From: a virus
Strand: one strand, 5' to 3'
DNA length: 36,632 nt
IMG/VR virus record: IMGVR_UViG_3300025769_000029
Coordinates: 1 to 36,632 of that record
Shown: one piece after another, positions 1,281 through 7,112 of the stretch
Numbering within the stretch: the first letter of the stretch is position 1
Layout of the letters: the number at the start of each line of letters is the position of its first letter
Notes under the pieces: generated by a model
The model's input: the letters and a program-made list of their open reading frames with translations, nothing else
The model's database searches: none
Told to the model about the DNA's origin: nothing
Position numbers and translations under genes: made by a program

Positions 1281-1928
1281 CTATTTAAAATATTTTAAAA
1301 TTATTTGCTTTTGTTTCTCCCTCGCAGCATCCCACGCCTCCCACGTAGCAGCCCACGCAGCAGCCTCCGTAGCAGCCCACGCAGCAGCCTCCGCAGCAGC
1401 CTCCGCAGCAGCCTCCGCAGCATCCCCCGCAGCAGCCTCCGCATCAGCCCACGCAGCAGCCTCCGCAGCAGCCTCCGCAGCAGCCTCCGCAGCATCCCAC
1501 GCAGCATCCCCCGCAGCAGCCTCCGCAGCAGCCTCCGCAGCATCCCACGCAGCATCCCCCGCAGCAGCCCACGCAGCAGCCTCCGCAGCATCCCTAGCAG
1601 TCTTAGTGGAGTTTTCATCTCTAGCTACTTTGATTGCATTCCTAGGTGCATCTAAATGTTCCGGACAATTATCTTTTGCCCAATCTTCCCAAATGTGTAA
1701 CACCTCTTCTGCAAAATCTGCACACATGTTTCTCTTATCCATTTCTCTATCAGGAATACAGTTGCAGATAACCCAAATAGTGTCATTTACACCATTATTC
1801 TCAAGTAGATGAGCAATAGTTACTTCTGTATCATCGGCTTCAGTCTTGTTGAAGGATTTAAGAAGTTCTTGCCAGCCATCCTCGCAAGGGGACTTAGCTC
1901 TTATTTTATTTAAAGTTAAATCTGCCAT
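1281..1928 (-). CDS. Putative-immunity-like domain fused to an Ala-rich EAAA repeat tail
   Basis: The 215-aa protein has two parts. Residues 1-105 contain a Cys/Asp/Gly-Trp motif (SPCEDGWQELLKSF), a DDTEVTIAHLLENNGVNDTIW segment and a Cys-rich helical stretch. This resembles the N-terminal pattern of a widespread phage/bacterial family annotated as putative immunity protein; that family call is from memory and uncertain. Residues 112-205 are almost only Ala with Glu, Trp, Gly and Asp in four-residue steps (EAAA, WAAA, GDAA), predicted as a long helix. The final residues (EKQKQIILKYFK) are basic. The repeat is GC-rich in an AT-rich genome. The gene follows the 58-aa HTH gene by one base, with its GAGG ribosome site inside that gene's end. 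The role is unknown. Confidence 0.8.
   Translation of the reverse strand: MADLTLNKIRAKSPCEDGWQELLKSFNKTEADDTEVTIAHLLENNGVNDTIWVICNCIPDREMDKRNMCADFAEEVLHIWEDWAKDNCPEHLDAPRNAIKVARDENSTKTARDAAEAAAWAAAGDAAWDAAEAAAEAAAGDAAWDAAEAAAEAAAEAAAWADAEAAAGDAAEAAAEAAAEAAAWAATEAAAWAATWEAWDAAREKQKQIILKYFK
1325..1600 (-). repeat. GC-rich 12-bp minisatellite coding EAAA units
   Basis: On the plus strand the unit GCAGCAGCCTCC is repeated many times with variants such as GCATCCCCCGCA and GCCCACGCA. Read on the minus strand in frame, each 12-mer gives Glu-Ala-Ala-Ala. All frames stay open across it, which explains several spurious overlapping ORFs on both strands. Such arrays can change length by slippage, so the repeat number may vary within the viral population. 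Confidence 0.9.
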
Positions 1929-2167: not shown

Positions 2168-2641
2168 TTAATTTATTCTAAACATTCCTATAGACCTTAG
2201 TCTTTCTAGTATCTTCCGACCTTGTTTATCAGCTGAGGCTTTAAATTTATTCCAATCTTCATCATCCATTTCTTGTATATTTTCTATTTCTAATAGTTTC
2301 TCCATACAATCTTCGATACCTTGTTCGATCTTGTAGCCATCCAGCTTTAGTTGGAGCATCACTTGATATAATATTAAAACCAGCTTATGAGAGCTTTTAC
2401 CCTCGAAATATAACTCAAGTAGTCCAACTTGTTTATTAGTCTTAGCAATAAGGCCCTGCCATTTTTCGTAAGATTTGTTGGAGTAAAGTTGTATCTCCTC
2501 CTTTATTACCTTCTCTATCTGGTCGGCAAAGTCTTCAAACCTTGAATTATCTTCACTCGCAATACCATAGCGGACAATAAGGAATATTTGAGATAAGAGA
2601 AATATTTCTTCTTTTAGGCGCGAATCTTTTTTATAAGTCAT
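2168..2641 (-). CDS. Hypothetical helical protein, 157 aa
   Basis: The protein is rich in Leu, Glu and Lys and looks all-helical. Hydrophobic helices lie at about residues 10-25 and 68-95, without a clear membrane segment or signal peptide. It overlaps the end of the upstream GNAT-like gene by 11 bases, as is usual in this operon. No family is recognised. Confidence 0.7.
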   Translation of the reverse strand: MTYKKDSRLKEEIFLLSQIFLIVRYGIASEDNSRFEDFADQIEKVIKEEIQLYSNKSYEKWQGLIAKTNKQVGLLELYFEGKSSHKLVLILYQVMLQLKLDGYKIEQGIEDCMEKLLEIENIQEMDDEDWNKFKASADKQGRKILERLRSIGMFRIN

Positions 2642-3020
2642 TCTTTAAAACTTTTTTAATTTGCTTAAGAGATTGCTTGCGGATCTCGAATAATTGATCA
2701 ATTATATCAAAGACCCCCAAGTAATAGTAATAATCATCACTCACCCACATTCTTGCAAAATAATTATCTTCAAGCAATTTCACCGAAGCAAGATTATCCT
2801 TCTCAACTATGGCAATAAATCGCTCTATCCCCTCCTCTCGTAAACGAGAAAGGTACTTCTTTAATTCTTTTGACATTATACCCTTTGACCGATAATTATC
2901 GTCGATCTCGTACTCTAAATGAGGAATCTTGTTTTTGTTATAATAAACCAATTGGATCTTACCAACCTGTTTATTATGTCGCGTTATCTTGTAATAGTTA
3001 CTCACTCTTGCTTTATTCAT
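2631..3020 (-). CDS. GNAT-family N-acetyltransferase-like protein
   Basis: The 129-aa protein has the core GNAT layout: strand 4 (IPHLEYEIDDNYRSKGIMSK) with an R-x-K-G-I-M acetyl-CoA pyrophosphate loop, a helix, strand 5 (RFIAIVEK), then NLASVKLLEDNYF, the N-x-x-S-x-x-L-x-x-x-x-F signature of the last core helix. GNAT enzymes move an acetyl group from acetyl-CoA to an amine. The substrate here cannot be told; phage members may modify host proteins or small molecules. The start at 3020 (ATG) has GGGAGG upstream and overlaps the end of the 76-aa gene; a GTG one codon earlier (3023) is also possible. Confidence 0.75.
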   Translation of the reverse strand: MNKARVSNYYKITRHNKQVGKIQLVYYNKNKIPHLEYEIDDNYRSKGIMSKELKKYLSRLREEGIERFIAIVEKDNLASVKLLEDNYFARMWVSDDYYYYLGVFDIIDQLFEIRKQSLKQIKKVLKNDL

Positions 3021-3243
3021 CACTCCTCCCTATTTGATCAAGCCAGACTTCAAACTTCCAGGCGTAATCAGGATAATGTTCCTGCATAAATAAATCGACA
3101 AGCTTGTAGAACTGGTGATTGTATTTCATTGAATCGGATAATTTAACTCGATCTAAATCTGTCAACGCCTTCTTCTTCTCCGAAGCTGATTCTATCTGAA
3201 TGCGTTTTTGTTCGCGGTATTGAGTTAGGTCAATTATTTTCAT
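3013..3243 (-). CDS. Hypothetical protein, 76 aa
   Basis: A small charged protein with an N-terminal basic helical part (YREQKRIQIESASEKKK) and an aromatic C-terminal half (HYPDYAWKFEVWLDQIG). It has a strong ribosome site (GGAGG, 6 bases from ATG) and sits between the helicase-loader-like gene and the GNAT gene. No family is recognised. Confidence 0.7.
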   Translation of the reverse strand: MKIIDLTQYREQKRIQIESASEKKKALTDLDRVKLSDSMKYNHQFYKLVDLFMQEHYPDYAWKFEVWLDQIGRSDE

Positions 3244-3258
3244 TGTCTACCTCCAATA

Positions 3259-3849
3259 TCAAGACGCCACAGAAATCAAAGCATCTAGTCGACTTAAACG
3301 CTTGTTGGCATCTTCTAATTTCTTTTCAATAATAGCTGTCAAATCAGCAATTACTGGGAAACTCTTTTGAGTCTTCACCCACTGATTAATCGCTTTAGTT
3401 ATGATTATCAAAGGGTAATCCTCCAAGAATGTCAGAAACATTACCACCGTATCACTCTTGAATCCATCATCTTTTTTGCAATAAGTTGGGTAATTATTGA
3501 TCAGACTCAAAATTGTCTGTTCAAAAAGTTTCTTACAATCTTCGTTCTGCTTCAACTCTTTAAGTGGTTGCATCATAGAGGAGAATTTAGATCTATAAGC
3601 CTTAAGCTCCTTCTCTACTCCACTCAACACTGGAACAGGAATTGAAGGGATTTTAACCAAAGTACTTCCTCGAAGCGCAAAACCTTTGTAGCACGGATGC
3701 GATTCTTCATAAGTCCAATTGATGAGATTATTTCTATCCTCCAGAACACTCTGAAAATCACTAAACATTACTTTCGGTAAACCAATATCATGATTAACAA
3801 TACAATGATTAATCTTAGATTCGTTTGTTGTTTTTATTAAATCAGTCAT
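3259..3849 (-). CDS. Helicase-loader-like replication accessory protein
   Basis: The 196-aa protein starts with ATGA overlapping the stop of the replication initiator gene, so the two are coupled. A helical module in its C-terminal half (about residues 107-178) has an L-x-x-YP, AINQWVKTQKSFPVIADLTA pattern. This is like the helicase-loader/G39P-type modules in which a helix bundle ends with W-x-x-x...FP...L. In phages of this layout the gene next to the initiator often loads the host DnaB-type helicase at the origin. No Walker A motif is present, so it is not a DnaC-type AAA+ loader. The assignment is inference from the motif and the neighbour. Confidence 0.45.
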   Translation of the reverse strand: MTDLIKTTNESKINHCIVNHDIGLPKVMFSDFQSVLEDRNNLINWTYEESHPCYKGFALRGSTLVKIPSIPVPVLSGVEKELKAYRSKFSSMMQPLKELKQNEDCKKLFEQTILSLINNYPTYCKKDDGFKSDTVVMFLTFLEDYPLIIITKAINQWVKTQKSFPVIADLTAIIEKKLEDANKRLSRLDALISVAS

Positions 3850-5733: not shown

Positions 5734-6033
5734 ATGGGAAATAAGAAGAAAAAAGAGCATCAATTATTGAGTAAGGAAGATTCTGACGTAATGCGTGAAT
5801 ACTTGCTTAAGCGTGGTAATATAGCTAAGTTGGCTAATAAGGTTGGACTTAGTAGGGAGGCTGTAACTTATCAGAGAGATAATGATAAATTCCCTAAGTA
5901 TTATTCTTGTTTTCTAGAAGTTAAAAAATTAGAAAAAGAAATATTGACACTTAAAGAAGCTAATAAATCTCTAAAGAGAATGCTACAATTTGCATTTTCT
6001 GAGTTTGGAGATCTCGAATCATTAAAAAAATAA
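5734..6033 (+). CDS. HTH regulator-like protein with C-terminal coiled coil, 99 aa
   Basis: Residues 19-55 (MREYLLKRGNIAKLANKVGL, then SREAVTYQRDNDKFPKYY) read as a Cro/XRE-like HTH with the pattern of a repressor or Cro family member. The N-terminus is basic (GNKKKKEH). Residues 62-90 (EVKKLEKEILTLKEANKSLK) form a leucine-heptad coiled coil, suggesting a dimer. No Shine-Dalgarno precedes the ATG. An operator-like motif overlaps the start codon, so self-regulation is plausible. It is the first gene of the rightward early block. Confidence 0.65.
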   Translation: MGNKKKKEHQLLSKEDSDVMREYLLKRGNIAKLANKVGLSREAVTYQRDNDKFPKYYSCFLEVKKLEKEILTLKEANKSLKRMLQFAFSEFGDLESLKK

Positions 6034-6046
6034 TTAAACAGAAAAA

Positions 6047-6454
6047 ATGACTAAGAAAATAATATGGAAAATAATTGACGGTGTCGAGTGGTGTTATGAT
6101 GAGAATAATAATCGTAATTCTGTTGAATGCTGGGGATCTCGAAAGGATGCGGAAAAAGCATTAAATAGTTTGGTTAATTGCAAAGATTGTAGTGATTGTA
6201 GTTATTGCAGTTATTGCAGAGATTGCAGAGGTTGCAGGTATTGCAGTTATTGCAGTTATTGCAGAGATTGCAGAGGTTGCAGGTATTGCGTGGGTTGCAG
6301 TGATTGCGTAGGTTGCAAGGATTGCGTAGGTTGCAGTGATTGTGCAAATTGCAGTGATTGCAGTTATTGCAGTTATTGCAGTGATTGCAGTGATTGCAGT
6401 GATTGCAGTGATTACTCTGGGAAAAAGGATAATGAAGAGAGAAAGGAGAAATAA
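6047..6454 (+). CDS. CxxC tandem-repeat protein with 26 regularly spaced Cys, 135 aa
   Basis: An N-terminal domain of about 43 residues (KKIIWKIIDGVEWCYDENNN and on) is followed by 26 Cys at exactly every third residue (about residues 45-120), as C-S-D, C-S-Y, C-R-D, C-R-G, C-V-G and C-K-D triplets. A further triplet has Tyr in place of Cys, and the end is charged (GKKDNEERKEK). A three-residue Cys period would put one Cys face along an extended or left-handed helix. It may bind metal or form a disulfide-bonded beta-solenoid; neither can be proved here. Proteins of this kind occur in other phages and bacteria without known function. It lies between the HTH gene and small membrane proteins. 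Confidence 0.75.
   Translation: MTKKIIWKIIDGVEWCYDENNNRNSVECWGSRKDAEKALNSLVNCKDCSDCSYCSYCRDCRGCRYCSYCSYCRDCRGCRYCVGCSDCVGCKDCVGCSDCANCSDCSYCSYCSDCSDCSDCSDYSGKKDNEERKEK
6178..6414 (+). repeat. 9-bp tandem repeat array coding Cys-x-x triplets
   Basis: The unit is TGCAGTGAT with variants TGCAGTTAT, TGCAGAGAT, TGCAGAGGT, TGCAGGTAT and TGCGTAGGT, in about 26 head-to-tail copies. Copies fall into larger blocks: the run SYC-SYC-RDC-RGC-RYC is present twice (about 6200-6240 and 6245-6285), showing recent block duplication. Other frames stay open through it, giving false ORFs on both strands. Confidence 0.93.
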
Positions 6455-6455
6455 T

Positions 6456-6620
6456 ATGCAAGTCTTTATCATTTACGTATTATACGCTATAGCGATCGGA
6501 TGTCTAAGCGCCAGCCTCCTAGTTAGTCTACTGTTAAATAATTACTGGCACGCATTCTTGAATATAACAATGATTGTGCTCTTAATAAAATCTTCTTATG
6601 AATATTTTTGCGAGGATTAA
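6456..6620 (+). CDS. Small membrane protein, 54 aa
   Basis: The start MQVFIIYVLYAIAIGCLSAS is supported by AAAGGAG upstream; the in-frame ORF extension back to 6336 is read through the Cys-repeat array and is not real. Two hydrophobic segments (about 3-27 and 34-48) suggest a hairpin in the inner membrane. Its stop overlaps the next start as TAATG. Confidence 0.65.
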   Translation: MQVFIIYVLYAIAIGCLSASLLVSLLLNNYWHAFLNITMIVLLIKSSYEYFCED

Positions 6621-6979
6621 TGAAACAAGTGAAAGAATCATTGGAAGAAGAAATAAAAGCCCTGAGGGAGTTTAATGCTGAGTTAGATTCTAAATATCCA
6701 GAACTATTGATGAAGAAGAGGGGTAATAAAAAACTAAACCTAAAACGCATTTTCTATTTTATTGTTTGTATTGTGTTGTTAATACTTTGCTCCCTCTCAT
6801 TGGGAGCCGATCTAGTACTAGAGAACGGTCCGGAAATTATTATTGACTGCATTTCGATTATTGCAATTGCATCTCTTACTTATACTTTTTTAGATACGAC
6901 AAACAATAACTATATCATAATCAATACAAACAACTATGACAGATCTAAAAAAACTAAAGAAACATCTAAAAAAGACTAA
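6620..6979 (+). CDS. Two-span membrane protein with N-terminal coiled coil, 119 aa
   Basis: The ATG at 6620 overlaps the previous stop (TAATG) and has CGAGGA upstream; an earlier TTG at 6608 is rejected. Residues 1-30 (KQVKESLEEEIKALREFNAE) form a charged helix. Two transmembrane helices follow (about 44-64 and 74-91), then an Asn-rich polar tail. It is likely an inner-membrane protein made with the 54-aa membrane protein. No family is recognised. Confidence 0.65.
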   Translation: MKQVKESLEEEIKALREFNAELDSKYPELLMKKRGNKKLNLKRIFYFIVCIVLLILCSLSLGADLVLENGPEIIIDCISIIAIASLTYTFLDTTNNNYIIINTNNYDRSKKTKETSKKD

Positions 6980-7112
6980 CAGACATATCAAAAAGAGTCC
7001 AGTCACCAAAGGAGCCGGCGATCTAGGCCTAGAAGTTGCCGAATCCACACCTCCGGGCGAAATCGTAACAGCAGCCATAGCTGAGAACGAACAAGAGAAT
7101 AGCAAAAAGTAA
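6936..7112 (+). CDS. Small hypothetical protein, 58 aa, overlapping the upstream gene
   Basis: This ORF (MTDLKKLKKHLKKTNRHIKK and on) starts inside the end of the membrane-protein gene in another frame. It has a basic N-terminal half and an acidic C-terminal half (EVAESTPPGEIVTAAIAENE). No Shine-Dalgarno is seen. Its third-codon-position pattern and richer GC look coding. It is the last ORF before the promoter at 7162. Confidence 0.5.
   Translation: MTDLKKLKKHLKKTNRHIKKSPVTKGAGDLGLEVAESTPPGEIVTAAIAENEQENSKK

What the first reader, a model, noticed from the sequence alone, without database searches (positions are those of the whole stretch)
6047..6454. Protein with 26 Cys at exactly three-residue spacing
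A 9-base DNA repeat gives an uninterrupted run of Cys-x-x triplets, with the between-residues limited to a few pairs (SD, SY, RD, RG, RY, VG, KD). Such strict periodicity could form a metal-filled or disulfide-ladder solenoid. Phage function is unknown. Cytoplasmic expression would keep thiols reduced, favouring metal binding.
Basis: partly seen in the sequence, partly recalled or inferred. Interest (0 to 1): 0.65.

Follow-up and report, generated by a model that had tools for sequence, protein, structure and literature searches.

The report
Cys-every-third-residue phage solenoid protein
This phage gene makes a small protein with 26 cysteines spaced exactly three residues apart. It belongs to a large, almost unstudied group of phage proteins in which this array takes the place of known coiled "solenoid" repeats, so it is probably a thin cysteine-cored rod, perhaps filled with metal.

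Summary
ORF 6047-6454 encodes 135 aa with 28 Cys, 26 of them in an uninterrupted Cys-x-x array (residues 45-122) behind a conserved N-terminal cap. It is not an isolated curiosity or a decaying DNA repeat. I collected 217 distinct arrays (5,199 units) in other viral and bacterial contigs. In 121 proteins chosen by their flanking domains, not by the array, 2,979 of 2,984 array positions are Cys. Of 61 genes with complete upstream sequence, 58 are open through cap, array and C-terminal domain. Unit number changes fast and in frame: two otherwise near-identical genes differ by exactly 45 bp. Two unrelated C-terminal domains found behind Cys-x-x arrays are found elsewhere behind pentapeptide, hexapeptide or YdcK-type beta-solenoid repeats, so the array sits where solenoids sit. 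AlphaFold2 models the window protein as a solenoid (pLDDT about 75), but not a divergent relative, and AF2 is known to over-predict solenoids. Neighbours are mostly early DNA replication and recombination genes, so the protein is probably cytoplasmic. Best explanation: a narrow Cys-cored solenoid needing metal-thiolate cross-links to fold. The solenoid is moderately supported; the metal is inference. Pfam and NCBIfam have no model; PHROGs lists it as unknown.

The parts
6047..6454 (+). Cys-triplet array protein, 135 aa
   Evidence: phrog_15341 E 1.1e-16 over residues 8-123; no Pfam or NCBIfam match
6080..6178 (+). Conserved N-terminal cap, residues 12-44: W.xDxNxNxxSVexxGS..(d/e)A..AL.SL.NC. 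Two strands and a helix, AF2 pLDDT about 92
   Evidence: alignment A2, 94 relatives in viral contigs, AF2
6179..6412 (+). 26 uninterrupted Cys-x-x units (residues 45-122)
   Evidence: codon-shuffle control
6197..6286 (+). Internal 5-unit (45 bp) tandem duplication SY SY RD RG RY x2 inside the array, read from the unit list
   Evidence: cf. exact 45-bp indel between L003 and L004
6413..6454 (+). Short charged tail YSGKKDNEERKEK; no C-terminal domain, as in a minority of relatives
5734..6033 (+). Upstream gene in the same tight cluster (13 bp gap): small protein with a possible HTH, only sub-threshold matches
6456..6620 (+). Downstream gene, 1 bp gap: 54 aa, hydrophobic, no family
6620..6979 (+). 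Downstream gene overlapping the previous by 1 bp, 119 aa, with hydrophobic stretches, no family

Best explanation
The gene encodes a cytoplasmic, probably early-expressed phage accessory protein. A small N-terminal cap (two strands and a helix) seeds a narrow beta-solenoid in which every third residue, always Cys, points into the core, x1 (mostly Ser) forms the beta-bridge and x2 (Asp, Gly, Arg, Asn, Tyr) sits at the corner. The array has almost no other hydrophobic residue, so in a reducing cytoplasm the coil should need cross-links to be stable; the most likely are metal-thiolate bonds (Zn, Cu(I) or Fe) along the core. The rod works like a pentapeptide-repeat protein, as an elongated docking scaffold whose length is tuned by in-frame gain and loss of 9-bp units; in relatives a separate C-terminal domain is carried on its end. 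SHOWN: array, reading frame, Cys invariance, unit-number change, interchange with known solenoids, early-gene neighbourhood in class I relatives. INFERRED: the solenoid geometry of the array itself, metal in the core, scaffold role and binding partner.
For: Interchange: the WH(T)C..HCRAGW C-terminal domain follows Cys-x-x arrays in 14 and pentapeptide repeats in 15 of 30 bacterial loci (PF00805 E down to 7e-105). The IGSR domain follows Cys-x-x arrays in its 27 viral loci but pentapeptide, Hexapep or YdcK solenoid repeats in sequenced Listeria, EBPR, Chryseobacterium and Bacteroides phages. AF2 on P0001: mean pLDDT 73.5, cap about 92, array 75-77, one bridge residue per triplet. Best PDB sequence match is TmAFP 1EZG, E 5e-4; VIA gives right-handed beta-helices, with TmAFP 1l1i aligned over 80 of 84 residues, Z 4.3. 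Cys kept in 2,979 of 2,984 units while Ser is written both TCN and AGY. Neighbours: RecE/RecT/Bet, DnaB, DNA polymerase, RusA.
Against: AF2 over-predicts beta-solenoids for repeats (41% of random ones, PMC11795689). The second AF2 job, on a relative with a more varied array, gave pLDDT 30-42 over the array. Foldseek found no significant PDB match and the VIA Z values are low. No coil period shows in unit lags, unit counts or duplication lengths. The TmAFP sequence hit is largely compositional. The N-caps of the pentapeptide versions are not detectably related. Nothing computed here tests metal binding or a partner.
Confidence: 0.45

Rival explanations
1. Flexible metallothionein-like chelator: the array binds metal through its thiols but has no fixed solenoid; it wraps around metal clusters. 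It would act as a phage-borne metal or redox buffer.
For: About 21% Cys, hydrophilic spacers; second AF2 model unstructured in the array; AF2 solenoid bias known.
Against: Strict three-residue register over thousands of units, unlike the irregular CxC/CxxC spacing of metallothioneins (general knowledge); Cys-x-x arrays replace structured solenoids before the same C-terminal domains; conserved folded cap.
Confidence: 0.2
2. Disulfide-ladder solenoid: the fold is as in Tenebrio antifreeze protein, with inward Cys paired as disulfides across each coil, formed after lysis or in the virion.
For: Best PDB sequence and one of the better structural matches is TmAFP, which is held together by such disulfides (general knowledge).
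Against: No hydrophobic N-terminal stretch visible; neighbours of relatives are early DNA-metabolism genes rather than virion or lysis genes, so synthesis is in reducing cytoplasm.
Confidence: 0.13
3. Solenoid with plain reduced Cys as small core residues; the protein works like gyrase-binding pentapeptide-repeat proteins, by surface shape and charge (DNA mimicry).
For: Module exchange with pentapeptide repeats; early-region genes; arrays mildly acidic on average (mean -0.11 per unit; window array -4).
Against: A packing role should tolerate Ala, Val, Ser or Thr as in pentapeptide repeats, yet Cys is 99.8% conserved; net charge is small and the window array has 8 basic residues against 12 acidic.
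Confidence: 0.15
4. Precursor of a ribosomally made, heterocyclised peptide like heterocycloanthracin, whose Cys-Xaa-Xaa repeat would be turned into thiazoles.
For: Published family with repeated Cys-Xaa-Xaa and in-frame unit indels (PMC2674419).
Against: No YcaO protein in the window or in 10 other array-bearing viral records, with working controls; no match to NCBIfam at all; C-terminal domains follow the array; arrays reach 59 units.
Confidence: 0.03
5. Selfish or neutral 9-bp DNA repeat that happens to be open.
For: DNA-level block duplications in about half of the arrays (111 of 217); array open in other frames too; 3 of 61 genes frameshifted.
Against: Cys 99.8% retained against TCN/AGY Ser and TGC/TGT Cys codon variety; 95% of genes in frame with both flanking domains.
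Confidence: 0.02

Closest known systems
PHROG families phrog_15341 and phrog_31265 (unknown function)
   Same: phrog_15341 matches the cap plus array of the window protein (E 1.1e-16); phrog_31265 matches the C-terminal domain of relatives
   Different: No function, fold or repeat description is attached to them
Pentapeptide repeat proteins (PF00805: Qnr, MfpA, AlbG type)
   Same: Share a C-terminal domain, each preceded by a solenoid-forming tandem repeat; phage-borne; length varies
   Different: Three-residue not five-residue unit, Cys not Leu/Phe in the core position, unrelated N-cap; no PF00805 match
Tenebrio molitor antifreeze protein (1EZG, 1L1I)
   Same: Small beta-helix with inward residues every third position, many of them Cys; best PDB sequence match
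   Different: Secreted, disulfide bonded, Thr ice-binding face; here Cys at every inward position and no Thr-x-Thr face
Heterocycloanthracin-type TOMM precursors (TIGR03601, PMC2674419)
   Same: Repeated Cys-Xaa-Xaa with in-frame unit indels
   Different: Short leader plus about 13 Cys, needs cyclodehydratase/YcaO maturases; none found here
Metallothioneins
   Same: Very Cys-rich small protein, likely thiolate metal binding
   Different: Perfect three-residue register, 8 to 59 units, conserved folded cap and C-terminal domains
Campylobacter phage IBB_35 protein AEI88196 (BFVD H6SUK4)
   Same: Same cap type and about 45-unit array in an isolated phage; BFVD match E 1.8e-8
   Different: More varied spacer residues; lies between gp20 and gp30 of a T4-like phage; annotated hypothetical

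Membership tests
phrog_15341 | HMM match over cap and array | tested here: met
   E 1.1e-16, residues 8-123
Pentapeptide repeat (PF00805) | A(D/N)LXX five-residue repeat, HMM match | tested here: not met
   No match for the window protein; relatives with the same C-terminal domain do match
Beta-solenoid proteins (fold class) | Regular coil with parallel bridges, confident model or solved structure | tested here: inconclusive
   AF2 solenoid, pLDDT about 75, for P0001; array unresolved for a relative; AF2 bias; low VIA Z
Beta-solenoid proteins (fold class) | Occupies the position of known solenoid repeats in shared domain architectures | tested here: met
   Two unrelated C-terminal domains in relatives; the window protein itself has the shared cap and array only
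TmAFP-type beta-helix | 12-residue coil with inward residues at every third position | tested here: inconclusive
   Three-residue register met and E 5e-4, but no 4-unit period found
Heterocycloanthracin / TOMM precursor | YcaO-type cyclodehydratase partner | tested here: not met
   0 of 11 viral records; control rings in 5 genomes
Heterocycloanthracin / TOMM precursor | Leader match to the curated model | tested here: not met
   No NCBIfam hit
Metallothionein | Match to a metallothionein Pfam or NCBIfam model | tested here: not met
Metallothionein | Stoichiometric metal binding by thiolates | not testable with these tools
   needs ICP-MS or native MS

The most novel reading that the evidence does not exclude
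A tripeptide-repeat beta-solenoid whose core is a continuous column of Cys thiolates filled with metal ions, a genetically tunable metal-cored rod used by many phages in place of pentapeptide repeats.
Probability: 0.3. Interest if true: 0.87.

Novelty: new variant of a known kind. Interest (0 to 1): 0.62.

Why it matters
Beta-solenoids normally have hydrophobic cores built from five-, six- or longer-residue repeats. A widespread class with a three-residue, Cys-only unit would be an unusually short-period solenoid repeat and, if metal-loaded, a natural metal-cored nanorod of programmable length. It would also give a structural handle on hundreds of phage genes near replication and recombination functions that are now 'hypothetical protein', and on the two solenoid-associated C-terminal domains.

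Tried and rejected
DNA-repeat artefact: rejected by Cys retention and intact frames. RiPP precursor: no YcaO, no NCBIfam match. Coil period from sequence: lag autocorrelation, unit counts modulo 2-5 and duplication lengths gave no convincing period; weak lag-5/10 signals vanish when duplications are removed. Homology of the N-cap to pentapeptide-protein N-caps: none. Conserved neighbour gene: none, only a shared functional class. Third C-terminal domain (L146, L175, L205) in sequenced phages: no match. PLSDB plasmids: no array (BLAST low-complexity filter on). LRR reading of L224: plausible by eye, no Pfam match. NCLDV capsid in class B records: none, but controls silent too; two of six have a terminase. 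IGSR-domain fold: best VIA Z 6.6 to PURA, not distinctive. Literature searches for phage Cys-triplet repeats or phage metallothioneins returned nothing in the open-access library.

Full report
1. What is there. ORF 6047-6454 on the + strand encodes 135 aa: a 44-residue N-terminal part, 26 uninterrupted Cys-x-x units (residues 45-122) and the tail YSGKKDNEERKEK. It holds 28 Cys. The units are SD (8), SY (6), VG (3), KD, RD, RG, RY (2 each) and AN (1), encoded by a 9-bp tandem repeat. Five thousand codon shuffles never gave a run above 8. Five units, SY SY RD RG RY, occur twice in tandem. The gene sits in a tight + strand cluster (5734-6033, 6047-6454, 6456-6620, 6620-6979, 6936-7112; gaps 13, 1, -1 bp and an overlap). 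The window is an IMG/VR virus record. Its head-closure Hc3 / packaged-DNA stabilisation protein matches Rhodoferax phage P26218 and Vibrio phages of similar genome size, and it carries terminase, portal and an Erf annealing protein.

2. It belongs to a family. phrog_15341 (unknown function) matches cap plus array at 1.1e-16; Pfam and NCBIfam have nothing. Using the protein, a generic (TGY N6)x12 DNA pattern, and alignments of the cap and of the C-terminal domains, I collected relatives from viral and bacterial contigs. After removing duplicates and non-genuine frames there are 217 distinct arrays with 5,199 units. Complete arrays run from 8 to 59 units. Many of the raw pattern hits are unrelated reverse frames and were dropped.

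3. Is the protein maintained? In 121 proteins picked through their cap or C-terminal domain, not through the array, 2,979 of 2,984 array positions are Cys; the exceptions are 3 Ser, 1 Leu and 1 Asn, in register. Across 173 arrays Ser at x1 is written by TCN (2,770) and AGY (422) and Cys by TGC and TGT, so the protein, not one DNA word, is conserved (part of that set was chosen by the DNA pattern, which inflates Cys retention there but not). Of 61 C-terminal-domain loci with complete upstream sequence, 58 are open from cap through array into the domain. Three are frameshifted (L244, L256, and L270, which is the same contig as L211), which could be real decay or assembly error. Campylobacter phage CJLB-12 has a stop in an array that is intact in phage IBB_35. 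Unit number changes quickly and in frame: L003 and L004 share 1,500 of 1,500 downstream bases and their genes differ by one 45-bp indel in the array and 4 substitutions. About half of the arrays contain DNA-identical blocks of 4 or more units, with no preferred shift.

4. Why a solenoid. (a) Domain exchange, the strongest argument. A C-terminal domain (WH(T)C..HCRAGW, phrog_31265) found behind Cys-x-x arrays in 75 of 80 viral loci also appears in 30 bacterial loci: by my reading, 14 have Cys-x-x arrays, 15 pentapeptide repeats and one an LRR-like stretch. Pfam confirms the pentapeptides in the three checked (PF00805, E 2.7e-37, 6.8e-105 and 1.4e-40); the LRR-like one has no Pfam match. A second, unrelated C-terminal domain (IGSR..., A5) follows Cys-x-x arrays in its 27 viral loci (one is cut at the contig edge). 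In sequenced phages it follows pentapeptide repeats (Listeria LWP01, EBPR siphovirus 1), Hexapep repeats (Chryseobacterium MA9V-1) and the YdcK beta-solenoid repeat (Bacteroides BF766P1). So the array occupies the slot of known beta-solenoids twice over. The window protein itself lacks a C-terminal domain; it is linked to these relatives through the cap and array. (b) AF2 on the window protein with 29 relatives: mean pLDDT 73.5, cap about 92, array 75-77 falling to 50, DSSP bridge at every third residue. VIA finds right-handed beta-helices and TmAFP (Z 4.3 to 5.3, low); BFVD finds the Campylobacter phage relative and a giant-virus protein named 'TNFR-Cys'. (c) The best PDB sequence match to the family profile is TmAFP 1EZG (E 5e-4), whose inward residues also recur every third position. 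Against: AF2 is known to give confident false solenoids for repeats (PMC11795689); a second AF2 run on a relative with a more varied array left the array unresolved (pLDDT 30-42); no coil period could be found in sequence. I put the solenoid at about 0.6 to 0.65.

5. What holds it together and what it does. The array has almost no hydrophobic residue other than Cys. TmAFP, similarly poor in core hydrophobics, needs disulfides (general knowledge). The N-terminus shows no hydrophobic stretch. Of 80 genes next to array genes of the cap/C-terminal-domain (class I) type, the recognisable ones are mostly early DNA-metabolism genes: RecE, RecT, Bet, exonuclease, DnaB, DNA polymerase, processivity factor, RusA. 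Synthesis in reducing cytoplasm is therefore likely. A packing-only role would tolerate Ala, Ser or Val, yet Cys is 99.8% kept. Together these favour a chemical role for the thiols, most simply metal-thiolate bonds. This step is inference. The biological role is then most likely that of an elongated, length-tunable docking scaffold like pentapeptide-repeat proteins; partner unknown. No YcaO maturase is present, which weakens the heterocycloanthracin analogy strongly (PMC2674419).

6. Family breadth. The cap recurs in variant forms that profile comparison links (A2-A4 probability 94.8%, A3-A6 99.9%; the latter includes the array). One group of phage contigs (two of six with a recognisable terminase) carries many array genes each: 16 matches in an 85.7-kb contig, 15 in 127 kb, 14 in 80 kb, 11 in 16.5 kb (a few are overlapping pieces of one gene). 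Other arrays start at the N-terminus and lead into further unrelated C-terminal regions (L053, L078, L083).

7. Verdict. Real, conserved and widespread; already clustered as PHROGs of unknown function but with no description found by me (only open-access full text was searchable). As a Cys-only tripeptide solenoid it is a new variant of the solenoid-repeat kind; the metal-cored version is the novel case and needs the bench.

Noticed in passing
window 1281-1928 (-): 215-aa protein whose C-terminal half is an Ala-rich repeat (AAEAAAWAAAGDAAWDAA) from a 12-bp DNA repeat at 1317-1594; no Pfam match.
   Followed up: partly
L323-L365, L006, L021 (contigs such as IMGVR_UViG_3300029922_000042): Single phage contigs hold up to about 16 array genes, both clustered and dispersed, sharing cap and C-tail but with different arrays.
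   Followed up: partly
L393, L395, L396, L394: A C-terminal 'IGSR...CGCF' domain is a shared end module of pentapeptide, hexapeptide, YdcK-solenoid and Cys-triplet proteins; no Pfam family for it.
   Followed up: partly
L146, L175, L205: A third C-terminal module (Y.W.A...G.WRI.AGC...AREHW) behind Cys-triplet arrays; not found in sequenced phages.
   Followed up: partly
L131, about 2482-3286 (Flavobacterium phage FL-1, KY421186): An array gene is split: the C-terminal domain leaves the array's frame after WHSCETT, and the deposited annotation places other short CDSs over the array.
   Followed up: no
L044 165-1100 (-), L067 1157-1864 (+): Long array proteins with interruptions that mostly keep the three-residue register (Ser or Leu in place of Cys) and other N-termini.
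   Followed up: no
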